DNA from: Bolinopsis microptera
Lineage: Eukaryota > Ctenophora > Tentaculata > Lobata > Bolinopsidae
Assembly (NCBI RefSeq): GCF_026151205.1
Contig: NC_087082.1
Coordinates: 10,858,901 to 10,922,900, forward strand
Direction of reading: 5' to 3'
Length of the DNA: 64,000 nucleotides
The notes beneath the pieces were generated by a model, which saw nothing but the letters and a program-made list of their open reading frames with translations, had not been told where the DNA came from and ran no database searches. A program made the position numbers and the translations under genes. Below are positions 13,678 to 44,100 of the stretch, in pieces; within the stretch, counting starts at the first letter, position 1; the number at the start of each line of letters is the position of its first letter.

Positions 13678-14876
13678 TTTCTTTGTAATATTATAGTGCA
13701 TCCTTAGATAAATGAACAACATTAGTTTGGACAAGCTGTTCCCAGCAACAAAATCGACTGTGTTCTTTATGCATATTACATTTCTCTACACCAATGACAC
13801 TTCAAGTGGCTCTAAGTTTTGATCGTCTAAGTGCACCAGTTGGGCATCACTACTATCCTGTGAAGGACCTTTTTGAAATTTTACTCTTTAAATTTGATCT
13901 TGCATTTCCACAGACTGCTTAGACGGCTAAACTTACTGTGCATTGCATCAATATACTATACTCGGCTGGACTTATTGTCATTGACAAAAGCATATTTTGA
14001 TATATCAAATTATTATAATAATTGTTGTATGGTAAATGCAAAATAAGTGAAAGTTTAAAATCAAAATATATCATAATTAAATTTTTTTATTTACCAAAGT
14101 TCTAATATGATGGACGTTTTCAGTAAGCTTTAATTTTTTGCTGTATTGTAAAATATGTAAAATTTGTGAAAGTTTCAAATCAAATCATATGTTTGTAAAA
14201 ATTTGAAGATGAATATTTTTCAGTAAGTTTACATTTTTTGTAAGTTTTAAAATTGTATAGTTATTTTGTCTCAAGTTTTCAAATTCTATTTTTTAACAGT
14301 TTTGACACGTCTTTTTGTTTTAATGCAACGATTTTTGTTTCAATGCATGATTTATTCAATTTAAGGTAATACTAAAGGTAACTTGTAGTATGAGGTATGA
14401 CTTTAATCTCATCTAAGATTAATTGCTGGATAAGAATTGAATATTTTGTTTTAATTTCAAGACGTATACTAGCAGTTTAAATCAGTGTATATTTTTCAGT
14501 TGTTCTCTGTGCTTATATATCTATCGCTATCAAAGATAGCGATAGATACGTATTGACAATTTTATGAATAAAAAAGACAATTTTTGGAATTTATTTCAAT
14601 GTATGACATTATTATATAGTGTATTCTCTACTATTAGATTCTCCAATTTAAAAAGTTACATCCTGATTCTTTGATTCCATTGCATGCTGTATAAAATATG
14701 ATTCATAGGTATGAGTTAATCGAGATTTTGTTCATTCTTGTGAATGAAAATAATTGAATAATAACTAGTTAGCTATATTAGAACCGGTTAGCTAACAAAC
14801 ATACATAATATTATAATAGTGTTATCATGTGCAAGTATGTCTGAATTTCAAATCGTTAAATCCCAAATTTTGTTTA
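13678..14876. other. AT-rich interval between convergent genes; hairpin at 14518-14548
   Basis: Holds the 3' UTRs of the RING gene (+) and the chitinase gene (-). A perfect 14-bp inverted repeat (TATCTATCGCTATC, 3-base loop) lies at 14518-14548. A minus-strand AATAAA lies at 14590-14595, about 280 bases past the chitinase stop, and is a plausible poly(A) signal. Confidence 0.5.
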
Positions 14877-16483
14877 TCAAGAGCATGATGCAAAGGTTTT
14901 TTGGGTGGCACAATCTAAGTTCGGTCCTGGTGTAGTATTCAACATTTCAGCAAAGATCTTGTATCCTTCAACTCTGTGTATTGTTTTATCCATAGGTGTC
15001 TTTCCACATTCAACCCCTGTAAAATGTTGGTATGATTATTTTTACTTGTAGAAACATAGTAAAGACCTAATTACTGCTAACTCAGCTTTAATTTCACTTT
15101 GACGAACAAATTTTCAACAGAGTCTCTACAGTATATAACTGGTAATATTAAGCCTAAAATTTTTGTGATGGGATGGTAGCAGGTTGATGATTTTATTTTA
15201 AGCTTCTGATTGGAAAATGCTCTGACCCCATAGGCCAATTCAAGAACAATAGTTGTAGTTTAATAACAATTAACCTCCATTGATTATGTTGATAGTCGCT
15301 CCAAATCCTACATCTCGTCCACATTCCGTGTCACCATCAGTAGGTTTCCAGTTTTCAGTTATTGCATCGTGACATGATGGTTTGGGTTCCTGTTATGGTT
15401 TCTGTGTTATCACTAGCTGAAATTCTATCTGCGTGTTCAGTGTAAAGACAAACTACCACCTAATAAGAACAGCAAAAATGTAGGTAAAGAATTAAACTTT
15501 GAATAATATTCAAGAGTTTTTGCTTACAGATATCATGCTTTATTCGTGCTATTCAAAGATGTTGGTGTTTGTTACTGTACCTGTGGTGTCATCCAAAACC
15601 AAAGAGCTGTTTGGAATGCAAGTTTTCCTTCTTGTGCCACTCTCTGTGGGTTTTTTAGGAGCACCATATTGTCCCCGAACAGTTGCTTACTTACAAAACC
15701 ATAGTTGTAATTCCATGACAATTGCATTGGTCCTGGACGAAGGAAATCAGTTTAATAGTGTTATTAATATACAGCAACCTGTAAAAGTGTAAATATCAGG
15801 GCCAAAGTTTAGCTGGTTGAAACAATGGGTGGTCCGACTAACAGAAAATGAAACAGCTGAATCTAATTTCAAGATATGTCATATGTTGATCTACTGACCT
15901 CTGCCATGGTAACTTTTACCAGGCTGACAAGGATCATCGGAATTGTTGGCATCACAGTAAGCTACTTCCCCATTGTCACTCCTTCCAACCTTTCAAATAA
16001 TATAAATTGAAATGTGTGGGTAAAAAATTGTCTTAATTAGATGTTAGTAAATTAGATCACTATCTAGAATATTAAAATACGTGTACGGTGGTGATCGCCA
16101 AACTGATTCAGTTAGTATAAAGCTCCAGTAACGAAAATACTGTAGAGCTCAATACACTGGATTGTTACGATTAATGTAACAAGCTGAGGGGATAATAACC
16201 TCTTGCAGAAAGTAGAGGCCCCAAGCATATCTGCCGTCCGGGGCTGTATCCCAACCCCCAGTTGTCTCTTGTGCTATGTTTGCCAGGAATGCTGCTATCT
16301 CCCGTCTGTTTATTTCATCTGAGCCGTCGTTAGCAAAGAGAGGATAGCCCTTGGCTGCTTCCAGCAGGTGTTCGTATTCATACAACTTGAACTCAGCCTC
16401 CCCCTTTTCGTTTCTGTACGGAAAGAGTTCCTCAAAATCCTCCTTAGTGAAGTATTTCTCCAAACCTCCGTTATCTTCGATAC
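14877..16483 (-). CDS. GH19 chitinase domain, C-terminal end of the protein
   Basis: Five exons encode [40 protein letters not shown] (acid Glu of the HETTGGW motif, with Gln for His), [13 protein letters not shown] (second catalytic Glu), [59 protein letters not shown] and [10 protein letters not shown], then a stop. This is the full order of GH19 landmarks, about 250 residues. GH19 is common in plants and bacteria and sporadic in animals. It is preceded by sushi module 3 with a matching phase-1 junction. Confidence 0.93.
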
Positions 16484-19400
16484 CTGAGATAACATCTTTT
16501 TTTAAGCAAAACCAACTTACAAACAGTTGCTCATGGTTTCGCTTCATTATTATTTTTATTTCCTTACTTACAGTAATTGGTATAAGTTACTTAAATATTC
16601 ATTTTGATAACGCAAGCAAAATCTCGGTTATAATAGGGAGTGAATATAATGTCGGCTAACGCAGCATGGGGATCCATTATTAAGCTAAGGTAAGGTGTTA
16701 CAGGTGAACTTAATTAAAATGATTATTGTATTTTGTTTTATTATCATAACTTACATTCGGGAAGCTCTCCCCAATCATTCTTCTGGCACGTAAGAACACT
16801 ATTTCCCGAAATTCTGAACCTGTAACAAAATTATATTTATACTCTAAAGAATACACTGTAAAATCCAGTTTGTTTTTATTTATCAATTAGTGCTTAAAGT
16901 TCAATTAATGTGTGTGATACTGTACAAGTTTTTGCTCACCCATTCTTGCAACTTATCGTAGCTGTCGTTCCTTCTGTAACCTGTTTGATCTTTTTCACAC
17001 TGAACGTCACCTTCTTCACTGCGTTTTTCACCTTCTTAACCTTTTTCTCCAGAGCTTTAGCACTCTTCTTGTTGCACTTCTCCAAATCTCCGTTATCTTC
17101 GATACCTGAGATAAAATCTTTAAACTCACAAACAGTTGCTCATGGTTTCGCTTCATTATTATTTTTATTTCCTTACTTACAGTAATTGGTATAAGTTACT
17201 AAAATATTCATTTGATAACGGGAGCAAAATCTCGGTTATGATAGGGGAGTGAATAATATAATGTCGACTAACGCGGCATGGGGATCCATTATAAAGCTAA
17301 GGTAAGGTGTTACAGGTGAACTTAATTAAAGTGATAATTGTATTTTGTTTTATTATCATATCTTACATTCGGGAAGCTCTCTCCAATCATTCTTCTGGCA
17401 CGTAAGAACACTATTTCCCGAAATTCTGAACCTGTAACAAAATTATATTTATACTCTAAAGAATACACTGTAAAATCCAGTTTGTTTTTATTTATCAATT
17501 AGTGCTTAAAAATCAATTAAGGTGTGTGATACTGTACAAGTTTTTGCTCACCCATTCTTGCAACTTATCGTAGCTGTCGTTCCTTCTGTAACCTGTTTGA
17601 TCTTTTTCACACTGAACGTCACCTTCTTCACTGCGTTTTTCACCTTCTTAACCTTTTTCTCCAGAGCTTTAGCACTCTTCTTGTTGCACTTCTCCAAATC
17701 TCCGTTATCTTCGATACCTGAGATAAAATATTTAAACTCACAAACAGTTGCTCATGATGGTTTTGCTTCATTATTATTTGTATTTCCTTACTTACAGTAA
17801 TTGGTATAAGTTACTAAAATATTCATTTTGATAACGCAAGCAAAATCTCGGTTATAATAGGGAGTGAATATAATGTCGGCTAACGCAGCATGGGGATCCA
17901 TTATTAAGCTAAGGTAAGGTGTTACAGGTGAACTTAATTAAAATGATTATTGTATTTTGTTTTATTATCATAACTTACATTCGGGAAGCTCTCCCCAATC
18001 ATTCTTCTGGCACGTAAGAACACTATTTCCCGAAATTCTGAACCTGTAACAAAATTATATTTATACTCTAAAGAATACACTGTAAAATCCAGTTTGTTTT
18101 TATTTATCAATTAGTGCTTAAAAATCAATTAATGTGTGTGATACTGTACAAGTTTTTGCTCACCCATTCTTGCAACTTATCGTAGCTGTCGTTCCTTCTG
18201 TAACCTGTTTGATCTTTTTCGCACTGAACTTCACCTTCTTCTCTGCGTTTTTCACCTTCTTAACCTTTTTCTTCAGAGCTTTAGCACTCTTCTGGTTGCA
18301 CTCTGAAGAAAGGAACTTTTATCGGTCAGTAGATATAATATGACATATTTTAAATCATATAACGTACAGTATAGATAGCAATAATATCTTTTCTTGCTCA
18401 TACTAACATAGAACATACTAATTAACTCCAGCAGATAATCTTAAATAAAACAAATTACTTGATTTATTGTCTTCATCCTCATTTTCATCATCACTTTCAT
18501 CCTCATTTTCATCGTCATTTTCATCGTCATTTTCATCGTCATTCTCATCGTCATTTTCATCGTCATTTTCATCGTCATTTTCATCGTCATTTTCATCATC
18601 ATTTTCATCACTGTTGTCATCATTTTCTGATGGAGAGAGATATGTTCGCATTGCAGTCAGGAAAGGGTTTTTTCCATCTCCGCACAGGTCTTTGAAATCA
18701 TCCATTGAAGTATCCCAAACCATTCCACCTGCTAGCCCCATGTCTTTGATGTACTGCATCTGCAAAAGTTAGACTGTATAAAAACTGATAAACAATTACT
18801 GGCATCTGACCTATCTGAATTTTGATTTAAAAACAATAATATTACCTTTATTTTAACTGTTTCAAGATCATCAAATCCAACCCACTGGTCCCCCATGTAG
18901 GCGTGAGGACCAACAATGCATTCATCACCCTTAACTTTAGTCCAGCCCTTGTCCTTGATGTTCAGGCAGATCTCATGATATCCCATATAACCTGCTTGCT
19001 TTGTCCACTTACCTAAAAGTAGAGTTCACATAATATTATGAAGGTAGATAATTAAAAGTTATCATGGATTAGTTTCAGTGCCTACATGGCTACTCTATAA
19101 GTCTATTTATATTAGCATCGTTACCTTCAACCCCGGCTCCACTTGAATCAGCTCCGATGCCATTATTTGCAGAGTTTGTTAGAGTAAAAGACCGACCATA
19201 AATGCCTAGTCCCATCTGGATCTTGTTGGCTGGAAAGCCTTTAGCAATCCAGTGTTTAACAGCAGTGTCCGTGTTGAGTTTGTCAGCATTGCAACCTAAG
19301 AGAGGAGAATTGTGTCCTGTGACAGTCTCCCAAGAGCCATGGAAATCGTAAGACATGAGGTTAAGATAGTCAAGGTACTGAGCCAGAACTGGAACATCGT

Positions 19401-22400
19401 AGCCAGCATCAATAACAGCCTGACTGGCAGAAACAGCAGCAGTTACCAGCATATTGTGAGGAGCAAACAGCTCCTTCAACTCCTTTACCCAGATTCCAAA
19501 GTTGGTCTTGTCTGATGGATCTGGGTTGGGTAGATTGTGTTATTAATGGCAGTATAACTACAAAATATATCACTTTACTCTATTGATTTATAGAAGGAGT
19601 AGGTACTGTTTATGTATCGGTATGTCCTAAGTTGTTGTTATATTTTATACCTGATTCATCACAATTAGCCTGCCAACAGGCGGGATACTCCCAATCCAGG
19701 TCCAGTCCATCAAACTTCCACTTTTGAAGAATTTCCAGAACATCAGAATTGAATGCCGCCCTGAAATTTGTTGGTGATTAATTGTACATTTATTATACAT
19801 TTTTAGGTCAAGGAATGGTCCTTAGATAAAGATGTGCATTCATATAATCTTAACAGGAGTTAGAAAGTAAAGAGACTTGTATCTTAAGATCAGATAATAT
19901 ATCTAAACTCTACCTCAGCTGAGGGGACTTGGCTAGATCCGAATACTTGGAGCCTTCGCTGTCATTCCAGCCGCCAATAGCCAAGAGAACCTTTCTGACC
20001 CTGGATCCTGCAGCATTCTTTAAATCAACAATCTTTTTAAAGAACTCTCCTCCACCCACATCAGTGTCTGCCCAAGGATCATGGACCTTGATCTTGTTGT
20101 TGTCCAAGACAGCGAATGCGTAGTTTATAATGGTACAGAGTGTTGGGTCTACATTATCTGCTGAGTATTTACCGTTCCCCTCACGGTACCAGGCCCAGTT
20201 AATAAAGTAGCACACAACGTCTTTATCTCCATAGTTTTCCGAGGATTCATCATCGTTGTTTTCGTCATTTTTATCGTCATTTTCATCGTCATTTTCATCG
20301 TCATTTTCATCGTCATTTTCATCTTCATTTTCATCATCACTTTCATCACTGTTGTCATCATTTTCTGATGGAGAGAGATATGTTCGCATTGCAGTCAGGA
20401 AAGGGTTTTTTCCATCTCCGCACAGGTCTTTGAAATCATCCATTGAAGTATCCCAAACCATTCCACCTGCTAGCCCCATGTCTTTGATGTACTGCATCTG
20501 CAAAAGTTAGACTGTATAAAAACTGATAAACAATTACTGGCATCTGACCTATCTGAATTTTGATTTAAAAACAATAATATTACCTTTATTTTAACTGTTT
20601 CAAGATCATCAAATCCAACCCACTGGTCCCCCATGTAGGCGTGAGGACCAACAATGCATTCATCACCCTTAACTTTAGTCCAGCCCTTGTCCTTGATGTT
20701 CAGGCAGATCTCATGATATCCCATATAACCTGCTTGTTTTGTCCACTTACCTAAAAGTAGAGTTCACATAATATTATGAAGGTAGATAATTAAAAGTTAT
20801 CATGGATTAGTTTCAGTGCCTACATGGCTACTCTATAAGTCTATTTATATTAGCATCGTTACCTTCAACACCGGCTCCACTTGAATCAGCTCCGATCCCA
20901 TTATTTGCAGAATTGGTTAGAGTAAAAGACCGACCATAAATGCCTAGTCCCATCTGGATCTTGTTGGCTGGAAAGCCTTTAGCAATCCAGTGTTTAACAG
21001 CAGTGTCCGTGTTGAGTTTGTCAGCATTGCAACCTAAGAGAGGAGAATTGTGTCCTGTGACAGTCTCCCAAGAGCCATGGAAATCGTAAGACATGAGGTT
21101 AAGATAGTCAAGGTACTGAGCCAGAACTGGAACATCGTAGCCAGCATCAATAACAGCCTGACTGGCAGAAACAGCAGCAGTTACCAGCATATTGTGAGGA
21201 GCAAACAGCTCCTTCAACTCCTTTACCCAGATTCCAAAGTTGGTCTTGTCTGATGGATCTGGGTTGGGTAGATTGTGTTATTAATGGCAGTATAACTACA
21301 AAATATATCACTTTACTCTATTGATTTATAGAAGGAGTACTGTATCGGTATGTCCTAAGTTGTTGTTATATTTTATACCTGATTCATTACAATTAGCCTG
21401 CCAACAGGCGGGATACTCCCAATCCAGGTCCAGTCCATCAAACTTCCACTTGTGAAGAATTTCCAGAACATCAGAATTGAATGCCGCCCTGAAATTTGTT
21501 GGTGATTAATTGTACATTTATTATACATTTTTAGGTCAAGGAATGATCCTTAGATAAAGATGTGCATTCATATAATCTTAACAGGATTTAGAAAGTAAAG
21601 AGACTTGTATCTTAAGATCAGATAATATATCTAAACTCTACCTAAGCTGAGGGGATTTGGCTAGATCCGAATACTTGGAGCCTTCGCTGTCATTCCAGCC
21701 GCCAATAGCCAAGAGAACCTTTCTGACCCTGGATCCTGCAGCATTCTTTAAATCAACAATCTTTTTAAAGAACTCTCCTCCACCCACATCAGTGTCTGCC
21801 CAAGGATCATGGACCTTGATCTTGTTGTTGTCCAAGACAGCGAATGCGTAGTTTATAATGGTACAGAGTGTTGGGTCTACATTATCTGCTGAGTATTTAC
21901 CGTTCCCCTCACGGTACCAGGCCCAGTTAATAAAGTAGCACACAACGTCCTTATCTCCATAGTTTTCCGAGGATTCATCATCGTTGTTTTCGTCATTTTC
22001 ATCGTCATTTTCATCGTCATTTTCATCGTCATTTTCATCACCATCTTCATCATCATTTTCATCTTCATTTTCATCATCATTTTCATCACTGTTGTCATCA
22101 TTTTCTGATGGAGAGAGATATGTTCGCATTGCAGTCAGGAAAGGGTTTTTTCCATCTCCGCACAGGTCTTTGAAATCATCCATTGAAGTATCCCAAACCA
22201 TTCCACCTGCTAGCCCCATGTCTTTGATGTACTGCATCTGCAAAAGTGAGACTGTATAAAAACTGATAAACAATTACTGGCATCTGACCTATCTGAATTT
22301 TGATTTAAGAACAATAGTATTACCTTTATTTTAACTGTTTCAAGATCATCAAATCCAACCCACTGGTCCCCCATGTAGGCATGAGGACCAACAATGCATT

Positions 22401-25400
22401 CATCACCCTTAACTTTAGTCCAGCCCTTGTCCTTGATGTTTAGGCAGATCTCATGATATCCCATATAACCTGCTTGTTTTGTCCACTTACCTAAAAGTAG
22501 AGTTCACATATTATGAAGGTAGATAATTAAAAGTTATCATGGATTAGTTTCAGTGCCTACATGGCTACTCTATAAGTCTATTTATATTAGCATCGTTACC
22601 TTCAACACCGGCTCCACTTGAATCAGCTCCGATCCCATTATTTGCAGAGTTTGTTAGAGTAAAAGACCGACCATAAATGCCTAGTCCCATCTGGATCTTG
22701 TTGGCTGGAAAGCCTTTAGCAATCCAGTGTTTAACAGCAGTGTCCGTGTTGAGTTTGTCAGCATTGCAACCTAAGAGAGGAGAATTGTGTCCTGTGACAG
22801 TCTCCCAAGAGCCATGGAAATCGTAAGACATGAGGTTAAGATAGTCAAGGTACTGAGCCAGAACTGGAACATCGTAGCCAGCATCAATGACAGCCTGACT
22901 GGCAGAAACAGCAGCAGTTACCAGCATATTGTGAGGAGCAAACAGCTCCTTCAACTCCTTTACCCAGATTCCAAAGTTGGTCTTGTCTGATGGATCTGGG
23001 TTGGGTAGATTGTGTTATTAATGGCAGTACATAACTACAAAATATATCACTTTACTTTATTGATTTATAGAAGGAGTACTGTATCGGTATGTCCTAAGTT
23101 GTTGTTATATTTTATACCTGATTCAACACAATTAGCCTGCCAACAGGCGGGATACTCCCAATCCAGGTCCAGTCCATCAAACTTCCACTTGTGAAGAATT
23201 TCCAGAACATCAGAATTGAATGCCGCCCTGAAATTTGTTGGTGATTAATTGTACATTTATTATACATTTTTAGGTCAAGGAATGATCCTTAGATAAAGAT
23301 GTGCATTCATATAATCTTAACAGGATTTAGAAAGTAAAGAGACTTGTATCTTAAGTTCAGCTAATATATCTAAACTCTACCTAAGCTGAGGGGATTTGGC
23401 TAGATCCGAATACTTGGAGCCTTCGCTGTCATTCCAGCCGCCAATAGCCAAGAGAACTTTTCTGACCCTGGATCCTGCAGCATTCTTTAAATCGACAATC
23501 TTTTTAAAGAACTCTCCTCCACCCACATCAGTGTCTGCCCAAGGATCATGGACCTTGATCTTGTTGTTGTCCAAGACAGCGAATGCGTAGTTTATAATGG
23601 TACAGAGTGTTGGGTCTACATTATCTGCTGAGTATTTACCGTTCCCCTCACGGTACCAGGCCCAGTTAATAAAGTAGCACACAACGTCCTTATCTCCATA
23701 GTTTTCCGAGGATTCATCATCGTTGTTTTCGTCATTTTCATCGTCATTTTCATCGTCATTTTCATCGTCATTTTCATCACCATCTTCATCATCATTTTCA
23801 TCTTCATTTTCATCATCATTTCCATCACTGTTGTCATCATTTTCTGATGGAGAGAGATATGTTCGCATTGCAGTCAGGAAAGGGTTTTTTCCATCTCCGC
23901 ACAGGTCTTTGAAATCATCCATTGAAGTATCCCAAACCATTCCACCTGCTAGCCCCATGTCTTTGATGTACTGCATCTGCAAAAGTGAGACTGTATAAAA
24001 ACTGATAAACAATTACTAGCATCTGACCTATCTGAATTTTGATTTAAGAACAATAGTATTACCTTTATTTTAACTGTTTCAAGATCATCAAATCCAACCC
24101 ACTGGTCCCCCATGTAGGCATGAGGACCAACAATGCATTCATCACCCTTAACTTTAGTCCAGCCCTTGTCCTTGATGTTCAGGCAGATCTCATGATATCC
24201 CATATAACCTGCTTGTTTTGTCCACTTACCTAAAAGTAGAGTTCACATAATATTATGAAGGTAGATAATTAAAAGTTATCATGGATTAGTTTCAGTGCCT
24301 ACATGGCTACTCTATAAGTCTATTTATATTAGCATCGTTACCTTCAACACCGGCTCCACTTGAATCAGCTCCGATCCCATTATTTGCAGAATTGGTTAGA
24401 GTAAAAGACCGACCATAAATGCCTAGTCCCATCTGGATCTTGTTGGCTGGAAAGCCTTTAGCAATCCAGTGTCTAACAGCAGTGTCCGTGTTGAGTTTGT
24501 CAGCATTGCAACCTAAGAGAGGAGAATTGTGTCCTGTGACAGTCTCCCAAGAGCCATGGAAATCGTAAGACATGAGGTTAAGATAGTCAAGGTACTGAGC
24601 CAGAACTGGAACATCGTAGCCAGCATCAATGACAGCCTGACTGGCAGAAACAGCAGCAGTTACCAGCATATTGTGAGGAGCAAACAGCTCCTTCAACTCC
24701 TTTACCCAGATTCCAAAGTTGGTCTTGTCTGATGGATCTGGGTTGGGTAGATTGTGTTATTAATGGCAGTATAACTACAAAATATATAATTTTACTCTAT
24801 TGATTTATAGAAGGAGTACTGTATCGGTATGTCCTAAGTTGTTGTTATATTTTATACCTGATTCAACACAATTAGCCTGCCAACAGGCGGGATACTCCCA
24901 ATCCAGGTCCAGTCCATCAAACTTCCACTTTTGAAGAATTTCCAGAACATCAAAATTGAATGCCGCCCTGAAATTTGTTGGCGATTAATTGTACATTTAT
25001 TATACATTTTTAGGTCAAGGAATGATCCTTAGATAAAGATGTGCATTCATATAATCTTAACAGGATTTAGAAAGTAAAGAGACTTGTATCTTAAGTTCAG
25101 CTAATATATCTAAACTCTACCTAAGCTGAGGGGATTTGGCTAGATCCGAATACTTGGAGCCTTCGCTGTCATTCCAGCCGCCAATAGCCAAGAGAACTTT
25201 TCTGACCCTGGATCCTGCAGCATTCTTTAAATCGACAATCTTTTTAAAGAACTCTCCTCCACCCACATCAGTGTCTGCCCAAGGATCATGGACCTTGATC
25301 TTGTTGTTGTCCAAGACAGCGAATGCGTAGTTTATAATGGTACAGAGTGTTGGGTCTACATTATCTGCTGAGTATTTACCGTTCCCCTCACGGTACCAAG

Positions 25401-27785
25401 CCCAGTTAATAAAGTAGCACACAACGTCTTTATCTCCATAGTTGTCCGAGGATTCATCATCGTTGTTTTCGTCATTTTCGTCATCATTTTCATCGTCATT
25501 TTCATCGTCATTTTCATCACCATCTTCATCATCATTTTCATCTTCATTTTCATCATCATTTTCATCACTGTTGTCATCATTTTCTGATGGAGAGAGATAT
25601 GTTCGCATTGCAGTCAGGAAAGGGTTTTTTCCATCTCCGCACAGGTCTTTGAAATCATCCATTGAAGTATCCCAAACCATTCCACCTGCTAGCCCCATGT
25701 CTTTGATGTACTGCATCTGCAAAAGTGAGACTGTATAAAAACTGATAAACAATTACTAGCATCTGACCTATCTGAATTTTGATTTAAGAACAATAGTATT
25801 ACCTTTATTTTAACTGTTTCAAGATCATCAAATCCAACCCACTGGTCCCCCATGTAGGCATGAGGACCAACAATGCATTCATCACCCTTAACTTTAGTCC
25901 AGCCCTTGTCCTTGATGTTCAGGCAGATCTCATGATATCCCATATAACCTGCTTGTTTTGTCCACTTACCTAAAAGTAGAGTTCACATAATATTATGAAG
26001 GTAGATAATTAAAAGTTATCATGGATTAGTTTCAGTGCCTACATGGCTACTCTATAAGTCTATTTATATTAGCATCGTTACCTTCAACACCGGCTCCACT
26101 TGAATCAGCTCCGATCCCATTATTTGCAGAATTGGTTAGAGTAAAAGACCGACCATAAATGCCTAGTCCCATCTGGATCTTGTTGGCTGGAAAGCCTTTA
26201 GCAATCCAGTGTCTAACAGCAGTGTCCGTGTTGAGTTTGTCAGCATTGCAACCTAAGAGAGGAGAATTGTGTCCTGTGACAGTCTCCCAAGAGCCATGGA
26301 AATCGTAAGACATGAGGTTAAGATAGTCAAGGTACTGAGCCAGAACTGGAACATCGTAGCCAGCATCAATGACAGCCTGACTGGCAGAAACAGCAGCAGT
26401 TACCAGCATATTGTGAGGAGCAAACAGCTCCTTCAACTCCTTTACCCAGATTCCAAAGTTGGTCTTGTCTGATGGATCTGGGTTGGGTAGATTGTGTTAT
26501 TAATGGCAGTATAACTAAAAAATATATCACTTTACTCTATTGATTTATAGAAGGAGTACTGTATCGGTATGTCCTAAGTTGTTGTTATATTTTATACCTG
26601 ATTCATCACAATTAGCCTGCCAACAGGCGGGATACTCCCAATCCAGGTCCAGTCCATCAAACTTCCACTTTTGAAGAATTTCCAGAACATCAGAATTGAA
26701 TGCCGTCCTGAAATTTGTTGGCGATTAATTGTACATGTATTATACATTTTTAGGTCAAGGAATGCTCCTTAGATAAAGATGTGCATTCATATAATCTTAA
26801 CAGGATTTAGAAAGTAAAGAGACTTGTATCTTAAGATCAGCTAATATATCTAAACTCTACCTCAGCTGAGGGGACTTGGCTAGATCCGAATACTTGGAGC
26901 CTTCGCTGTCATTCCAGCCGCCAATAGCCAAGAGAACTTTTCTGACCCTGGATCCTGCAGCATTCTTTAAATCAACAATCTTTTTAAAGAACTCTCCTCC
27001 ACCCACATCAGTGTCTGCCCAAGGATCATGGACCTTGATCTTGTTGTTTTCCAAGACAGCGAATGCGTAGTTTATAATGGTACAGAGTGTTGGGTCTACA
27101 TTATCTGCTGAGTATTTACCGTTCCCCTCACGGTACCAGGCCCAGTTAATAAAGTAGCACACAACGTCTTTATCTCCATAGTTGTCCGAGGATTCATCAT
27201 CGTTGTTTTCGTCATTTTCATCGTCATTTTCATCGTCATTTTCATCGTCATTTTCATTGTCATTTTCATCACCATCTTCATCATCATTTTCATCTTCATT
27301 TTCATCAGATGAATCACCTTCATTGTTTTCATCACTGTTGTCATCAATTTTGCAATCTACTTGTGCTTCCCAGTTGCACTGCAAAGACGAATATAAATGG
27401 AAAAGCTATTCTAACTAATTTCCCAAGGAGTAAATTACATCAATAAATCACATTTTATATTAATTTGTAGTTTATAAACTTTGTTCCGACTCATGGATCT
27501 CCTTATCTCCTACTGCATTGATTATTTCAGAGTATTTTTAAATGTCTGATTTTAAATTTTTAAGGCTATTATGTTACAAGGACAACTTACGTTCTGAATG
27601 TCTTGATCCCAAAGTGTCCCATCTGCACAGGGGTACCTCCAAGCTACACCAGACCCACAGTTGTAGTAATATTCACAAGAGGTAGGGTCAGTAAACAGAC
27701 CATTTGGATCAGGACAGTCAAAGTCTTGGTCGTGTTCTTGAGATAGTGCTCCTGCAATCCAACATAACAGGAAGAGTGCTATCAT
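14877..27785 (-). CDS. Secreted multi-catalytic chitinase: SP-CBM14-(GH18)x5-(CCP)x3-GH19, about 2,732 aa
   Basis: I reconstruct 33 exons. Signal/CBM14 27785-27591; linker + GH18-1 N 27378-26861. Each GH18 then has exons of 110, 396 and 167 nt (26707-26598, 26477-26082, 25969-25803 for the first). Exons shared by neighbouring GH18 domains are 25716-25121, 23976-23381, 22237-21642 and 20497-19914; the last GH18 end is 18759-18459. CCP exons: 18302-18164, 18043-17979, 17717-17552, 17431-17367, 17105-16940, 16819-16755. GH19 exons: 16483-16200, 15989-15899, 15732-15581, 15389-15275, 15016-14877. All junctions are GT-AG with matching phases, the sum is 8,199 nt, and the stop is at 14877-14879. 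GH18 (retaining) and GH19 (inverting) both cut beta-1,4-GlcNAc links in chitin. All catalytic motifs appear intact. It is probably secreted to bind and degrade or remodel chitin. The single-transcript model rests on phase agreement and needs RNA evidence. Confidence 0.87.
16755..18302 (-). CDS. Three tandem sushi/CCP modules with Lys-rich lead segments
   Basis: Each module is an exon pair (166 + 65 nt, 139 + 65 in the first) in a 612-bp tandem unit. The product has a Lys-rich stretch ([17 protein letters not shown]) and then [19 protein letters not shown] and [11 protein letters not shown], which has the Cys, Gly and Trp pattern of a sushi domain. Each pair begins and ends in phase 1, so copies can be added without frameshift. 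The first copy uses a different acceptor, giving [10 protein letters not shown]. The repeated IEDNG lead-in also opens the GH19 domain. Confidence 0.87.
18632..20218 (-). CDS. GH18 chitinase domain 5, joined to sushi modules
   Basis: Exons 19760-19651, 19520-19125 and 19012-18846 carry the catalytic motifs. The terminal exon 18759-18459 has the longest acidic tail and ends in phase 1 (codon A|AG) at a GTAATT donor. This fits exactly onto the first sushi exon at 18302 ([12 protein letters not shown]). This junction links the GH18 part to the GH19 part. Confidence 0.9.
20369..21958 (-). CDS. GH18 chitinase domain 4
   Basis: Exons 21488-21379, 21258-20863 and 20750-20584 carry [19 protein letters not shown] and the [14 protein letters not shown] segment. 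Flanking linker exons are 22237-21642 and 20497-19914. No disabling change is seen. Confidence 0.92.
22109..23697 (-). CDS. GH18 chitinase domain 3
   Basis: All catalytic motifs are intact (exon 23227-23118 for [10 protein letters not shown]; exon 22995-22600 for SYDFHGSWE). The exon 22490-22324 neighbourhood lacks a small ATA repeat in the intron that other copies have near the same site, a useful marker of copy identity. Confidence 0.92.
23848..25437 (-). CDS. GH18 chitinase domain 2
   Basis: Same four-intron layout as domain 1, offset by 1,740 bp. Catalytic [10 protein letters not shown] is intact (exon 24967-24858). Exon 24737-24342 carries the SYDFHGSWE motif with TAVRHWIAK, a form shared only with domain 1 (domains 3-5 have TAVKHW). 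This pairs copies 1 and 2 as the most recent relatives. Confidence 0.92.
25588..27177 (-). CDS. GH18 chitinase domain 1
   Basis: Starts [12 protein letters not shown] (strand beta 1), followed by VLLAIGGWN, the catalytic [12 protein letters not shown] (acid Glu present), [11 protein letters not shown] and [11 protein letters not shown]. It spans four introns. It differs slightly from the other copies, for example VLENNK instead of VLDNNK and RTAFNSD instead of RAAFNSD. The linker before it is unique to this copy (EGDSSDEN), because it joins CBM14 rather than another GH18. Confidence 0.92.
27591..27785 (-). CDS. Exon 1: signal peptide and most of CBM14 chitin-binding domain
   Basis: [16 protein letters not shown] is a clear secretory signal. 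It is followed by a peritrophin-A/CBM14 domain with Cys in [13 protein letters not shown] and YPC. The last two Cys (CNWEAQVDC) come from the next exon at 27378; the junction is phase 0 (QN|CNWE). With both exons the six-cysteine pattern is complete. CBM14 binds chitin and would anchor the enzyme to substrate. Confidence 0.9.
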
Positions 27786-29299: not shown

Positions 29300-31127
29300 G
29301 TGTAATGTATGCTGCAGCTAAGTCTGATAAATACACTCTTTTGGACAACAATATTGATGCAGTCAAACAATTCTTTGTTAGTTGAGTTGAAAGAGCTAAA
29401 AAGCATGCATCTCCTCAAAACAAGAGTGCAGCTACATTTCAGTCTTCATCGATCCCAGACACTAACAAAGAATATAATCCTTGGAATGATAAGCAGAGAA
29501 CAAATAATCTGTCTAAAGTGGTTTCTGTACAAAAGGACAATAATGGTAAAATCATCAATGATAACGACAGACTCCGAAAACAAATTGATGAATTAAAAAC
29601 CTTTTTCTTCCAATCCAACTACCCTAAAACTATGGTAGATAACATCAGTGAAAAAGTCAAAGGCTTTGAAAGATGCCTCAAACCACTGGACAACTCAAAC
29701 AGCAGTGTCCTGGTCCCAAAGTCTCCAGAACCAGCAGTCCGCGTTATTTCAACATTTGGCAGCGATCAAGAGTTAGTTGAATCGGTAAAAAGATTGGAAC
29801 CAGAACTCAGTAGAACCAGGAGCTTCTCAGGATTATCTGGTTCCCATACAAGTGGAAACACCCCAGGCTCCCCAATATCATCTAGAGCCAGTACATCACG
29901 CCCTATCTTCAAATTCGTCAGACGTACTGGAACATCATTTAGAAGGAAGTTAGTCAAAGCAAAACAGTTTGCGGATGACTTAACCCAACCTCACACAAGA
30001 CCATGTGGGGGCAGACACTGCGGTACCTGTAACATCATATCTCCACATCCATCAATAACAGTCAATGGACAGCGAGCCAAAGCAGTGTCTGGTACATGTG
30101 TCAGCTACAATGTTGTATACATCTTCAGTTGCCAACTTTGTAATATGTGTTATGTAGGAAGAACGGTGCAGCCCCTAAGGGCACGAGTAAACGAACATCG
30201 CGCTCATTACTACAAACTCATTTCGGACAATACGTTTGTCCCTGAAGAAAACGACGACGGATTCAGCTTGGGCAAACACCTTGTAGAAGTTCATAACATG
30301 AAACAACGTGACAATTTCAACCAGGCTTATAAAGTGTCAATTCTCAGTAATAGTAGCCCAAGAACTCTAGAAGTGGATGAACACCGTTACATTCAGAAAC
30401 TAAGAACTATACGTCCATTGGGGCTCAATGCCGTGGACCCGTTTGGGATTCCATTATTGGATTTATCTTAAAGGTTTTCCATTGCATTGGGGCACAAAAG
30501 TTATGTTTTTAAAAATATTCATAGGTATCGTTTTTATTTGTTTCATTTCATTTCCAATGTTACACTTTGTAGGAACTGATATTAACCGAGTTTCTGATTC
30601 AGGATGTTACTGAAGATAGTAATGAAAATGTTTTAACACCTCAGTACTGTGTTTTACTACAGCTCAACCTGCTCAGTCTGACTATTTGGGAATTTAAACT
30701 CTTGATAATGGTAAACTAATCAACTCTGAAAAACTTGAAAAGATATGTGTACAAAATGGTTTCTCAGTGCACAAAACATTTCACATGAAGAAATCTGATA
30801 CTACTGGAATGGTACTTAATCCTCAAACTGATGTTGATGTTCTGACTGCTAAACTTAGGGATGCTGATCATTCAGTTGTGAAAGTGTCGACTGAGTACCG
30901 ATTGTTCACATTGTAGGATTATCAAAGGAATACACTGCGGATGAATTAAAATCTATAATCTTAAAACAGAATCCTGGAATATCAACACTATTTGAATGTA
31001 CCTCTACGTCTATTGATGATAAACTGATCGATATCTTGGCTGTTGAACCTCTCAAAAACAATGTTCAAATCTTTAAGGCAATTGTAAAGGTCAGCAAAGT
31101 TATTAGATCCATTCTTGCTAAGTTTGA
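29300..31127 (+). mobile_element. Penelope-type retroelement remnant with GIY-YIG endonuclease ORF
   Basis: The open frame 29518-30471 (317 aa) ends in a GIY-YIG-type nuclease region: VVYIFSCQLCNMCYVGRT, then RARVNEHRAHYY, preceded by a Cys cluster (PCGGRHCGTC) usual before this domain in Penelope-like elements. Upstream residues (KTFFFQSNYPKTMVDNI) resemble the segment after the RT thumb; the RT itself is missing. From 30690 to 31127 a second coding relic (LNPQTDVDVLTAKL, ELKSIILKQNPGISTLFE) with a frameshift near 30905 looks like a retroelement gag-like ORF. Confidence 0.75.
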
Positions 31128-35100: not shown

Positions 35101-38100
35101 AAGATCTTTCATACAACTGTTCAGTTTTCAAAGCTTTCATTGTGTGCCGGGCTATGTAATCAGTTTTTACACAGACTAAATTAAAAGACGCCACCTAGAT
35201 CTCTCAATGAAGCAGTGAACGAGTGAAATACCGTTTTCACTATTTTTTGGAAACTTGGTTAAAATCAGAGTGCAGTCTGAAGCATAATAATAAGATCTCT
35301 AAGCATTTCTGCTGGTTTTAACCATTATGCTATTATGCGTAATTCTTTTATCTTGTATTTAATCACCTTCCCGTAAAGCACAATTATTTGTTATTGATAC
35401 ATGTTTATCTAACACTGTACAGTGTACACTGATACAGATATCTCGATGATATCATATCTACCCCTTTCTAACAATGTGCCCCTGAAGGACGCTAAATCTC
35501 GATGATATCTACCCCTTTCTAACAATGTGCCCCTTAAGAACGCTATACCTTGATAATATCTACCCCTTTCTAACAATGTGCCCCTGAAGGACGCTATATC
35601 TCGATGATATCTACCCCTTTCTAACAATGTGCCCCTGAAGGACGCTATATCTTGATAATATCTACCCCTTTCTAACAATGTGCCCCTTAAGAACGCTATA
35701 TCTTGATGATATCTACCCCTTTCTAACAATGTGCCCCTTAAGAACGCTATATCTTGATAATATCTACCCCTTTCTAACAATGTGCCCCTGAAGGACGCTA
35801 TATCTTGATAATATCTACCCCTTTCTAACAATGTGCCCCTGAAGGACGCTATATCTTGATAATATCTACCCCTTTCTAACAATGTGCCCCTGAAGGACGC
35901 TATATCTCGATGATATCTACCCCTTTCTAACAATGTGCCCCTTAAGAACGCTATATCTTGATAATATCTACCCCTTTCTAACAATGTGCCCCTGAAGGAC
36001 GCTATATCTTGATGATATCTACCCCTTTCTAACAATGTGCCCCTGAAGGACGCTATATCTTGATAATATCTACCCCTTTCTAACAATGTGCCCCTGAAGG
36101 ACGCTATATCTTGATGATATCTACCCCTTTCTAACAATGTGCCCCTTAAGAACGCTATATCTTGATAATATCTACCCCTTTCTAACAATGTGCCCCTGAA
36201 GGACGCTATATCTTGATAATATCTACCCCTTTCTAACAATGTGCCCCTGAAGGACGCTATATCTCGATGATATCTACCCCTTTCTAACAATGTGCCCCTG
36301 AAGGACGCTATATCTTGATAATATCTACCCCTTTCTAACAATGTGCCCCTGAAGGACGCTATATCTTGATGATATCTACCCCTTTCTAACAATGTGCCCC
36401 TTAAGAACGCTATATCTTGATAATATCTACCCCTTTCTAACAATGTGCCCCTGAAGGACGCTATATCTTGATAATATCTACCCCTTTCTAACAATGTGCC
36501 CCTGAAGGACGCTATATCTTGATAATATCTACCCCTTTCTAACAATGTGCCCCTGAAGGACGCTATATCTCGATGATATCTACCCCTTTCTAACAATGTG
36601 CCCCTTAAGAACGCTATATCTTGATAATATCTACCCCTTTCTAACAATGTGCCCCTGAAGGACGCTATATCTTGATGATATCTACCCCTTTCTAACAATG
36701 TGTCCCTGAAGGACGCTATGACAGTTACCTCGCAACCCGGATCAGCTGCAGGAAGCACGAAAGAGATAGAGGAGTACCTGGTGCAATTGGCCCCGTCTGA
36801 GATTGCCAGTTAGTATCACTTATAAAATAGATGATTTTAGCTGAAAATAGTTTTCTGAGTTCTCAAATTGAGCAAGTAATTGATAACACCGAGAATTAAA
36901 ATCTCTCCTTGTTTTGATGAGCCCAATAAGTAATTATTTTGTATTGAATACACAGTACACACCTACACACTCAGGCCACTACTATAATTCTATTTCGCTA
37001 TCAGATTACCAAACTAACCTCCAATCAGAGTGGACAACAGATGAAGTGTGTACTCAGTTCCTGGAGAGAATAGAGTTCGCTTATCTGATAGAGAACTTTA
37101 AAGTTAACAATATAACTGGCAGGGTGAGGTCTTTTTCCCTATTATTTCACTATTATTTCACTATTATTTCACTCTTATTTCACTATTATTTCACTGTTAT
37201 TTCACTATTATTTCACTCTTTTCAGAGAAGACGGTGTGATTCAAATGTTTTAGAGGTTACTCCTCTCTTATTTGCTAGGATTTAAATATTATCCCAAAGT
37301 CCCAAGGGCCAAGCCCCCAAATTAAAACAAATTTAAAAATTGGAGAGGCCGAATAAGAAAATGAAGATCTATAATTATTATAATATTATGTTATTATGAT
37401 TATAATTTCCAAACACAGGTTTTACTGATGTTGGAGGAGAGGAATTTAGTGGAGATGGGTGTTAATGTTATCGGGGACAGACTCATGATTCTCAGCTATC
37501 TCAAACTACTCAAAAAGAAGAAGGTGAGCTGTTTAAAACACTAGATATTGCGTGTGCGTAGTTCGTGATGAGGGGGGAGGGGGGAGGGGGGTGTTGTAAA
37601 GCAGCAAAGTTACTTCTGATTTCATGAGAGAAGCTAGAACTTTGTCGACAAATTACAGTGCCAGAAGGTATATAATATAATTTAGTACTATTAGTGATGA
37701 GTAGCAATTTAGGGCTTTAGGGAGAGAAAATTGGTGATATTGGTGATAATTTTGGGATCTTATGATATCTTATTTGATAAGATCACTGCCCACTGGCCAC
37801 TGGCTGCCGGCCGGCCACCCTTGCATAACTGAAACTCAGTCTCATTAACGCACTATGCTTAATGCTTATGTAACATACATAATATATATGTCCAATAAGC
37901 GTTATAATGTTTTATGACTTGCTTGTCATCTTCTGAGAATGCTGATGTGGTAAAGTCAGGAAAACATTTTCGATGATTTGTATGACGTGTCCATTGTCCA
38001 AATGTCCATGTCCCCTGCGTAATTACTGCATTATTCCAATCCGTTCGTCAAAATTAATTCACACTAACAGTTTTGTATTAGTAACTAAATCAAACAGAGT

Positions 38101-41100: not shown

Positions 41101-44100
41101 ACTTATTATTCCCTCCGATTTCAAGTTGTGGAACACAACAAGAAAATTGAGAATAATCTTGTGCGAGGGTAGGGACCCAGATGTCGTTTCTAACCCAAAT
41201 AAACTTTAAGGAGGAATCTCATCAGTAGCCGCACCTCCTTACTCGGTTTCTGAACTGAAATTCTATGGGCCTCCAGACGGCCAGACCGAGTATTACCATC
41301 CCATCCTTATAGAGTTCATCACAAGTAGCACCCATATAATAGGTATTCTGTATCTAGGTACATTAGGTATTTATGTATATTTAAGAGGTTGAGAGCTGCT
41401 AAGCCATTAGATACGCCTATAACTGCACTTGAAGTTGAGACAGCAGCCAAGAAACTAAAGAACGGTAAAGCCGTTGGTCCTGACAACCTCCCTAACGAAT
41501 TCCTTAAGTATGCACCTCCTTCTTTCTACATGAAGTTTGCATCACTTATCAATGAGTCCTTTGAAAAACAAGAGCACGTTCAATCGTTCACTGAGGGATA
41601 TCTTACCCCCCTACAGAAGCCTGGAAAACCAAAAGGACCAGTTAAGAGTCTGCGTCCCTTGTGCCTTCTCAATGGAACTAGGAAAATCCTTTCCATGATA
41701 ACACTCCAGCGTATTCAACAACAGATAGCAGACTACACTGGGCCATGGCAGAATGCCTATAAATCAGGACACAGCTGCTCTAATATTGTCTGGACACAAA
41801 GGGTTCTTATTTCTGTTGTCAAGGAGAAACATTGGGAGTTTAGTAAAATGGGGATAGACATGTCATCAGCCTTCGACACAATACATCGGTCAACTATCCT
41901 CAGGCTACTCGAAGATGCAGGATGCTCAGAAGATGACATAAGACTAGTTAGATATCTGCTCGCTAACACCAAGCTCAGAATTAAGATCAAAAAGACGACA
42001 TCGGGAGAGTTCGAAGTCACAATAGGAGCCTTTCAAGGTGACTGTTTGTCTGGCTCGCTGTTTACCATGTACCTAGCTGGAGCACTCTACCACCTTAGAG
42101 TTGTTGTTATACATCTACGCCCAAATCCCCCCATATCTGAAAGCTCCCTTCCTTTAGAATGGGAATATGCTGATGATGTGGACTTTGCTGATGAAGATGA
42201 GGATTCGTTACACCAGCTCCTTCCAATTTGCAAGGAAATTCTCTCAGAATGGAATTTGTTTGTAAATGAATCTAAAACCGAGTTTGTAAAGTGTTATCTG
42301 GCTGGAAGTAGTGAGAAGGACGAAAAAGGAGAACCTCTAAGAAATAGAGAACCTTGGAGGAAGTGTGTGTCCCTAGGCTCTAAGCTATGTAGTAAAGAAG
42401 ACATACAGCATCGTATAATCCTTGGAAATGTTGCATTCGAAAAATACAAGAAAGTTTGGATGCAAGGATCTAAGATTAATCTGAAGACCAAGATTAAGAT
42501 ATACGAAGCATACGTTACATCTGTTATGCTCTATAACTGCAATAGCTGGGCTACCCCTCAGAACCTATTTGACAAACTTGATGCATGTCATAGAAGACAC
42601 CTGCGTCAAATATTGAAGATGACTTATCCCATTATTATCAGTAATAAAGCACTCTATGAACGCTGTGGTGTAACACCGTTGTCAGAGCGAGTGACATATG
42701 CTCGCTGGAAAATGCTTGGACATGTCCTTCGCAGTGACTGCTCATCACCAGCTCAGAGAGCTCTTCAATTTGCTGTTAATGCGTTATTTACCATGAAAGG
42801 ACGTGTTGGTCGACACCAAAGTAATCTTTTAAAGTTTATTATAAATGATTTGAATAAAAGAAACCTACCATTACGTGATATTAATGATCTTTATGATCTT
42901 AGGGCTACTGCCTCTAACAGAGTTTTGTGGAGAAAATTATTTACCTCATAATTAACCTTTATTTTTCAGAGAACTGTTATGTTTTTTTGGGCACTTATCA
43001 GTCTCTTATATTAAGATGTTTCTTTACTATTTTGAGATTGTTTTAAAAGTTAGATAATAATATAATAATAATAATAATAAATATAAGAGGTTGACGCCCC
43101 CCAAAAGCCAATGGCGCGGAATAGCGATAACCCCTTCCGTCATGGCTTATTTCCCCTTGAAGTAGGCATAAACGTGGGCGACTAATTGTTCAATTGGGAG
43201 CTTTGAATCACTCATAATACTTTATCACCACATCTTTAATACTATATAAACTTAACTCTTTTTATCTTTGCGACTAATAAATAATAATCCTATGAATGTC
43301 TCTCCTAAAGAGATCAAGGGTCGAAACTTAATGGTATCACCTTTCCAATCATGGAGAATGCATGAGTCACAACTGTTTTTGTAGTTTTGTCGCCGATATT
43401 GAAAAAGTTAGTTCAACTGTACAAAACAATAAGCTAGATAATTTAATCAATAATTTTTGTAATCACTATACAAGCCATTCCTAATATATTGTCAATGATA
43501 ATAACATTCACAACATAAGACATACAAAAACATGTCAGTTATCCACTTTTATCAATGAAATTATCAAATGAAACTACTAAACACGGGAAAGTCTTTAACA
43601 TGGTACAGTGTGCACCCGTAGTAGTAATAAACTAAAAAGGCTCCTAATAATCTTCAAATAAAATACTAGATTAAATCAAATTGCAGTATTGATGTAGATA
43701 ACATTGCTTGCAGAAGCATTTTCAAGTTTTCTTCGTAAGTGTAGGATATACAATCCAGCCATAACTGATGTTATGAAGAAAACCGCTGCCAACCCTGATG
43801 ATATCCCAACTCTTATATTGTGTTGGGCTGCGTTGTCTGAAAAATAAATATAGTATTTAACACTTATACTATGCCATCGAAAATTATATATGTAGCTGTA
43901 AGTCCCTACTTCACAGCTCTGGCATCCTGTTGCTTGGTTTAGATATTGCCCTCCCACACAAGGACCTAAAATAATGACGTTTACAGGGTTTATAAATAAT
44001 TATTTCACTATTCAATAGTTCAATTCTAAAGCCGCAAACCTCAAAATGTGATGTATGAGGTTTATTTCTAGTACAGTCACTCTGTGAACTACCATCACCA

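What the first reader, a model, noticed from the sequence alone, without database searches (positions are those of the whole stretch)
14877..27785. One gene fusing five GH18 and one GH19 chitinase domains
Seen: signal peptide, CBM14, five GH18 domains with intact [10 protein letters not shown], three sushi modules and a full GH19 domain with QETTGGW, all on one strand, with every GT-AG phase fitting and a coding sum of 8,199 nt. Known: GH18 (TIM barrel, retaining) and GH19 (lysozyme-like, inverting) are unrelated folds. Inference: a natural multi-enzyme chitin degrader that combines two mechanisms on one chain; I know of no standard animal architecture like it.
Basis: partly seen in the sequence, partly recalled or inferred. 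Interest (0 to 1): 0.93.

Follow-up and report, generated by a model that had tools for sequence, protein, structure and literature searches.

The report
Animal chitinase with six catalytic domains
A single animal gene, probably from a comb jelly, appears to encode one secreted protein with five near-identical copies of one type of chitin-cutting enzyme plus one of an unrelated type, perhaps for digesting crustacean shells.

Summary
Minus strand 27785-14877 gives 33 exons, 32 GT-AG introns and one 8,199-nt frame: signal-like start, CBM14, five GH18, three sushi-like modules, GH19. All five GH18 motifs and both GH19 catalytic glutamates are present. GH18 units are about 1.74-kb tandem copies, 1-5 differences per 374 aa. 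Sushi-GH19 linkage is strongly supported: sushi units 2 and 3 share the intron end and exon start of GH19. GH18-sushi linkage is inferred: 156-nt intron, no start Met before the GH19 active site. No transcript was available. The genome is probably a ctenophore, perhaps Bolinopsis microptera; it has a second GH19 gene with CBM14 and two other GH18 loci. Best reading: a secreted digestive chitinase, array-expanded like insect group II chitinase and joined to GH19. GH18-GH19 chains are published for bacteria and a diatom, so this is a new variant; I found none reported in animals (searches named in the full report). Activity, synergy and one-transcript status are untested.

The parts
27591..27785 (-). 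Exon 1: start codon, signal-peptide-like sequence, most of CBM14
   Evidence: signal peptide by eye
26861..27378 (-). Exon 2: end of CBM14, acidic linker 0 (57 aa, net charge -34), start of GH18-1
25585..27177 (-). GH18 unit 1; catalytic motif [10 protein letters not shown] at aa 255
23845..25437 (-). GH18 unit 2; motif at aa 678
22106..23697 (-). GH18 unit 3; motif at aa 1101
20366..21958 (-). GH18 unit 4; motif at aa 1524
18628..20230 (-). GH18 unit 5; motif at aa 1943
18459..18609 (-). Last acidic linker (12-bp minisatellite, net charge -37), ends at donor CAA|gtaatt; holds one AATAAA/ATTAAA at 18468
18303..18458 (-). 156-nt intron joining the GH18 part to the sushi part; no AATAAA/ATTAAA inside
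17979..18302 (-). Sushi-like module 1 (exons 18302-18164 and 18043-17979)
17367..17717 (-). Sushi-like module 2 (exons 17717-17552 and 17431-17367); its first exon begins like GH19 exon 1
16755..17105 (-). Sushi-like module 3 (exons 17105-16940 and 16819-16755); its first exon begins like GH19 exon 1
16200..16483 (-). GH19 exon 1, with QETTGGW (aa 2544) and the second catalytic Glu at its end
15899..15989 (-). GH19 exon 2
15581..15732 (-). GH19 exon 3 ([20 protein letters not shown])
15275..15389 (-). GH19 exon 4
14877..15016 (-). GH19 exon 5 and stop codon; first AATAAA/ATTAAA after the stop at 14595

Best explanation
It is one gene of an animal (probably a ctenophore, perhaps Bolinopsis microptera) for a secreted, chitin-binding chitinase with six catalytic domains. 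The CBM14 at the front anchors the chain to chitin; five interchangeable GH18 domains, spaced by long acidic linkers, cut the polymer many times per binding event; the C-terminal GH19, preceded by three basic sushi-like modules, cuts by its different, inverting mechanism. Products go to GH20 hexosaminidases, which the genome has. The likely use is digestion of crustacean prey. The GH18 array probably grew by unequal crossing-over between the 12-bp minisatellites that encode the linkers on both sides of each unit; the sushi array grew separately. Shown: exon structure, domains, intact catalytic residues, tandem near-identity, lower divergence in exons than introns, shared sequence between sushi units and the GH19 exon start. 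Inferred: one transcript, secretion, enzyme activity, additive action, digestive role, the crossing-over mechanism. The confidence figure is for the one-gene, secreted-chitinase reading; for the digestive role alone I would say about 0.65.
For: 33 exons, 32 GT-AG introns, one stop. Pfam matches for each domain type. QETTGGW and the later Glu align with solved GH19 chitinases (that these two Glu are the catalytic pair is recalled). GH18 best solved match is insect group II chitinase, 385 bits, with chitotriosidase about 294 bits. All five GH18 keep [10 protein letters not shown] and the [16 protein letters not shown] and [12 protein letters not shown] stretches. Over the 10 unit pairs, linkers and gaps left out, exons differ at 108 of 11,220 compared positions and introns at 77 of 4,698; pN 0-0.0057 against pS 0.017-0.050. 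Sushi-GH19 link: the end of the intron before GH19 and its exon start match those before sushi units 2 and 3 at 87-88%. GH18-sushi link: 156-nt intron without AATAAA/ATTAAA, and first Met after the junction at aa 2600, past QETTGGW at 2544. Diet: 14 exon-level GH20 matches, no chitin synthase match (PF03142, no candidates at all, so weak); PMC11184263 (abstract and passages) reports chitinases with the catalytic motif in two crustacean-digesting ctenophores and none in ctenophore-eating Beroe ovata.
Against: No transcript, protein or enzyme data. The GH18-sushi junction rests on splice-site and reading-frame logic; unspliced reading ends at a stop at 18418-18420, and an AATAAA/ATTAAA lies at 18468 in the linker exon, though before that stop. 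Donor 16200 looks weak. No relative of the gene from another ctenophore could be fetched, so conservation of the fusion is unknown. Absence of chitin synthase rests on a search that can miss exons. Insect ChtII domains C1 and C2 were additive, not synergistic (PMC5827449), so synergy should not be assumed.
Confidence: 0.8

Rival explanations
1. Two adjacent genes on one strand: a CBM14-5xGH18 gene that ends at the stop at 18418-18420, and a sushi-GH19 gene that starts with a 5' exon not recognised here.
For: Intron 18458-18303 is unproven; reading on from 18459 without splicing meets a stop at 18418-18420; an AATAAA/ATTAAA lies at 18468. The other GH19 gene of this genome, on C6, has no GH18 among the matches found on C6 (lower bounds) or in the 18.5 kb read around it.
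Against: No Met in the sushi-GH19 part before aa 2600, past the active site; only 156 nt between the parts; the signal at 18468 lies before, not after, the stop; phases fit across the junction.
Confidence: 0.13
2. Assembly artefact: the number of GH18 or sushi copies, or the join itself, was made by the assembler.
For: Unit exons differ by only 0.7-1.3% between copies, the situation in which copy number is most easily mis-assembled.
Against: No N; the copies differ by their own substitutions and indels; exons diverge less than introns, as in real copies. Copy number may still be off or vary between individuals.
Confidence: 0.05
3. Same single gene, but its main role is defence or remodelling rather than digestion.
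For: Cnidarian chitinases have been linked to regeneration (PMC11184263, discussion passage) and to pattern formation and immunity (title of a Hydractinia paper in the reference list of PMC1945033). Sushi modules are frequent in recognition proteins (recalled).
Against: Lack of a chitinase with the catalytic motif in the ctenophore-eating Beroe ovata fits diet (PMC11184263); no chitin synthase match here (weak).
Confidence: 0.25

Closest known systems
Insect group II chitinase (ChtII; OfChtII of Ostrinia furnacalis)
   Same: Five GH18 domains and CBM14 on one secreted chain of similar length (2,929 against 2,732 aa; PMC5827449, passages and section 5); best solved match of the GH18 unit.
   Different: ChtII generally has 4-7 CBM14, and no GH19 is named in the passages read; three of five OfChtII GH18 domains lack the catalytic Glu, here none does; here the GH18 units are near-identical, with acidic minisatellite linkers, and a GH19 follows.
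GH18-GH19 chains of bacteria and a diatom (Endozoicomonadaceae PMC10576748; Thalassiosira weissflogii TwChi10/22 PMC12028343; one in M5nr PMC6626019; Bacteroidales UBA6680, locus L050)
   Same: GH18 and GH19 on one deduced chain.
   Different: Not animals as far as stated; no 5+1 arrangement with CBM14 and sushi seen. L050 has three GH19 stretches and one GH18 with PKD-like domains.
CBM14-linker-GH19 gene on C6 of the same genome
   Same: 58% identical GH19; a phase-1 intron before GH19 in both (by eye); the two group together among bacterial relatives (100/97).
   Different: Pro/Thr-rich linker, no sushi seen there and no GH18 found on C6. Its CBM14 and exon joins were read by eye.
CBM14-linker-GH18 gene on C3 of the same genome
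   Same: GH18 of the same type (310.5 bits) with a CBM14-like start (by eye).
   Different: One GH18 in one uninterrupted 500-aa frame, Pro/Thr-rich linker.

Membership tests
GH18 chitinase | Catalytic DxxDxDxE motif with the Glu | tested here: met
   [10 protein letters not shown] in 5 of 5 units; Pfam 293 bits for unit 1
GH18 chitinase | TIM-barrel fold and hydrolase activity | not testable with these tools
   Fold inferred from a 385-bit match to a solved insect group II chitinase domain; activity untested
GH19 chitinase | Two catalytic Glu and the conserved core | tested here: met
   QETTGGW and the Glu of LYFLQE align with solved GH19; both invariant in the C6 paralogue; Pfam 239.9 bits, 3-232 of 232. 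Which Glu are catalytic is recalled.
GH19 chitinase | Inverting chitinase activity | not testable with these tools
   no assay
CBM14 (peritrophin-A) | Full domain with six cysteines | tested here: met
   Pfam 42.9 bits, 1-53 of 53; six Cys by eye
Sushi (SCR) | Four cysteines and the pattern over the whole domain | tested here: inconclusive
   Three Pfam stretches, best at profile 11-56 of 56; the part between the first and second Cys is lysine-rich
Insect group II chitinase | 4-5 GH18 domains on one chain | tested here: met
   five, if one transcript
Insect group II chitinase | 4-7 CBM14 modules | tested here: not met
   one CBM14 in the model; Pfam saw the two end pieces, and the middle holds only GH18 units and acidic linkers; definition from PMC5827449
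GH18-GH19 fusion chitinases | Both catalytic domains translated from one mRNA | tested here: inconclusive
   gene model supports it; no transcript

The most novel reading that the evidence does not exclude
A self-expanding multi-enzyme: linker minisatellites on both sides of every GH18 domain let the catalytic array gain and lose whole enzymes by unequal crossing-over, so that individuals carry different numbers of active GH18 domains, joined to a GH19 that complements them. It would be an animal chitinase that holds both hydrolase families on one chain, with catalytic-domain number as a variable trait tied to crustacean diet.
Probability: 0.3. Interest if true: 0.7.

Novelty: new variant of a known kind. 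Interest (0 to 1): 0.52.

Why it matters
It shows how an animal may assemble a multi-enzyme chain from two unrelated chitinase families, a design that the passages I read describe in bacteria and a diatom, and it offers a natural system to test whether tethering GH18 to GH19 improves attack on crystalline chitin. Near-identical active units with minisatellite linkers make the growth of an enzyme array open to direct population testing. It bears on how ctenophores, early-branching predators of crustaceans, digest prey, and it shows that a chitinase survey based on GH18 alone (PMC11184263 names no GH19 in its main text) misses part of the repertoire.

Tried and rejected
Assembly gap: rejected, no N. 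GH19 as a bacterial contaminant: rejected; it has introns, lies on a contig of at least 20.59 Mb (C11 match), and groups with the C6 paralogue at 100/97. In that tree the pair falls in a 13-row group (100/98) whose 11 other rows are 9 Bacteroidota, a Treponema and a Beijerinckiaceae; the step inside it that joins the pair to 8 mostly Bacteroidota rows is weaker (95/77), and C6_GH19 and L050 are flagged as long rows. The tree holds 72 bacterial rows and 2 from this genome and no other animal or plant rows, so it does not settle where the animal GH19 came from. Of 93 bacterial relatives the tool kept 80; 73 of 80 gave a GH19 domain over 150 aa and 72 passed the length filter for the tree. Frames were chosen by length around the match, so some high-GC frames are spurious; the count '1 of 80 loci with GH18' comes from one GH18 unit searched against the whole loci at E 1e-4 and could miss distant GH18.

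Organism: COX1 was sought and not found. The glutamate-receptor test gave mixed results: L006 has ML032222a (Mnemiopsis, recalled from the ML prefix) as best solved match, with only moderate similarity; L010 lists it below mammalian kainate receptors; L005 does not list it among the 60 shown of 483. Size (264.65 Mb) fits the 265 Mb given for B. microptera in PMC11797021, but that table gives 346 scaffolds against 232 contigs here. Ctenophore is likely, the species is a guess. The sushi module searched in this genome gave 6 matches in this gene and 5 weaker ones (40-54% identity) on C1, C2 and C5; these were not followed.

A wider survey of bacteria around L050 was dropped, the latter giving no kinship.
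Full report
What is there. The window is C11:10858901-10922900 of a 264.65-Mb genome in 232 contigs. Pfam, run on two end pieces, finds CBM_14 (42.9 bits) and Glyco_hydro_18 (293 bits, full length) in the first, and three Sushi stretches and Glyco_hydro_19 (239.9 bits, 3-232 of 232) in the last.

The GH18 array. Five units repeat with start-to-start spacings of 1,728-1,742 bp; the listed ungapped 300-nt stretches are 94-99% identical to their reference copy, except 87% where unit 5 has an indel. Each unit encodes 374 aa, and any two differ by 1-5 residues. Over the ten unit pairs, linkers and gaps left out, exons differ at 108 of 11,220 compared positions (0.96%) and introns at 77 of 4,698 (1.64%); pN is 0-0.0057 and pS 0.017-0.050, with one multi-hit codon left out in each of two pairs. 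The pairs are not independent, but the direction is that of selection keeping the proteins alike. All five units keep [10 protein letters not shown] and three further conserved stretches. The best solved relative is insect group II chitinase (385 bits); human-type chitotriosidase scores about 294. Six linkers of 45-57 aa flank the five domains; they consist mostly of D, E and N, carry net charges of -27 to -37, and are encoded by a 12-bp minisatellite. Minisatellites on both sides of every unit suggest unequal crossing-over as the way the array grew; this is inference.

The sushi modules and GH19. Three 612-bp units each encode a sushi-like module with a lysine-rich segment between its first and second cysteine, net charge +12 to +13. 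The GH19 matches solved GH19 chitinases (best 265 bits, an ancestral reconstruction) with QETTGGW and the later Glu aligned. A second GH19 in this genome, on C6, is 58% identical; by eye it is preceded by a Pro/Thr-rich linker and a CBM14 with a signal-like start, and both GH19 genes have a phase-1 intron directly before the domain.

One gene or two. The sushi-to-GH19 join is strongly supported by a footprint: the end of the intron before GH19 and the first bases of the GH19 exon are shared with the same places before sushi units 2 and 3, at 87-88% identity, so the sushi array expanded while already next to GH19 exon 1 on this strand. The GH18-to-sushi join is inferred. The intron is 156 nt and holds no AATAAA or ATTAAA; the phases fit; and no methionine occurs in the sushi-GH19 part until aa 2600, beyond QETTGGW at 2544, so a separate gene would need a 5' exon for which there is almost no room. 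Against this stand the lack of any transcript, the stop at 18418-18420 that unspliced reading would meet, and one AATAAA/ATTAAA at 18468 inside the linker exon, which however lies before that stop.

Which animal. COX1 was not found. One glutamate-receptor frame has ML032222a (Mnemiopsis, recalled from the prefix) as its best solved match, at moderate similarity; two others do not put it first. Contigs C3 and C6 are 21.3 and 20.9 Mb while C15 is 0.17 Mb, and total size fits Bolinopsis microptera (265 Mb, 13 chromosomes; PMC11797021, passages); the scaffold number in that table (346) differs from 232. I take ctenophore as likely and the species as a guess.

What it does. PMC11184263 (abstract and passages) reports three chitinase genes with the GH18 catalytic motif in each of Mnemiopsis leidyi and Hormiphora californensis and none with that motif in the ctenophore-eating Beroe ovata; GH19 has no occurrence in that main text. 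PMC13231562 (one passage) lists two chitinase genes among regions with signs of selection in Mnemiopsis. Here GH18 matches lie at three loci (C11, C3, C15) and GH19 at two (C11, C6); both are lower bounds. No match was found for chitin synthase (PF03142) or LPMO_10; both searches had no candidates at all, so they are weak. GH20 has 14 exon-level matches. A secreted digestive chitinase is the best reading. For mechanism, insect ChtII offers the model: its authors suggest that binding modules and many domains compensate for simple active sites, and its two active domains were additive rather than synergistic (PMC5827449, passages). I therefore expect multivalent attack by GH18 with GH19 cutting by its inverting mechanism, and do not assume synergy.

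What is known. Searches of the paper library: GH18 with GH19 and cnidarian (7 papers), chitinase with ctenophore (20 of 21 listed), GH18/GH19 catalytic domains and fusion (30 of 394 listed), GH18 domain with GH19 domain (5 papers), GH19 in animals and horizontal transfer (20 of 144 listed), group II chitinase (10 of 17 listed), chitinase with GH19 and Mnemiopsis (none), GH18-GH19 wording (5 papers) and a last broad one (15 of 34 listed). In the listings and the passages I opened, no animal GH18-GH19 chain appeared. What appeared is a 'dual GH18-GH19 endo-chitinase' in Endozoicomonadaceae (PMC10576748, passages), 'GH18-GH19 domain fusions' TwChi10/22 in a diatom (PMC12028343, passage), and one GH18-GH19 among 43 million mostly microbial proteins (PMC6626019, passages); PMC4928363 (passages) says GH19 is rarely found with other GH domains in bacteria. 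GH19 itself is known in animals: Hydra contigs (PMC6019070, passages) and a Metazoa group in the GH19 database (PMC8547705, passages). In the GTDB scan, 1 of 80 kept loci (of 93 relatives) had a GH18 match, in the same frame: a Bacteroidales chain with three GH19 stretches and one GH18. Most subscription papers and all preprint servers' own copies are missing from the library and supplements were not read, so an earlier animal report cannot be excluded.

Verdict. It is interesting for array growth and for the enzyme combination, less so as a principle.

Noticed in passing
G000:C3:6173624-6174661 (L002): CBM14-linker-GH18 gene in one uninterrupted 500-aa frame, unlike the intron-containing C11 and C15 genes: possible retrocopy or intron loss.
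   Followed up: partly
G000:C2:21804799-21899653: Five GH20 hexosaminidase matches without internal stops (four in frames of 408 aa), three of them about 2.2 kb apart: another tandem expansion in the chitin pathway.
   Followed up: no
L050:481-12822: Bacteroidales MAG frame of 4,114 aa within the locus (4,775) with three GH19 stretches, one GH18 and PKD-like domains.
   Followed up: partly
G000:C12:11782391-11809362: Cluster of four glutamate-receptor-like matches, three of them in uninterrupted frames of 923-949 aa.
   Followed up: no
window 41329-42951: 540-aa frame with a reverse transcriptase domain (RVT_1, 71.6 bits), probably a retroelement.
   Followed up: no
window 29386-30471: 361-aa frame next to the gene that looks by eye like a retroelement end with a GIY-YIG-type motif; no Pfam match at 0.001.
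   Followed up: no
window 35409-36809: 466-aa frame with a FAM234A/B beta-propeller match (101 bits).
   Followed up: no
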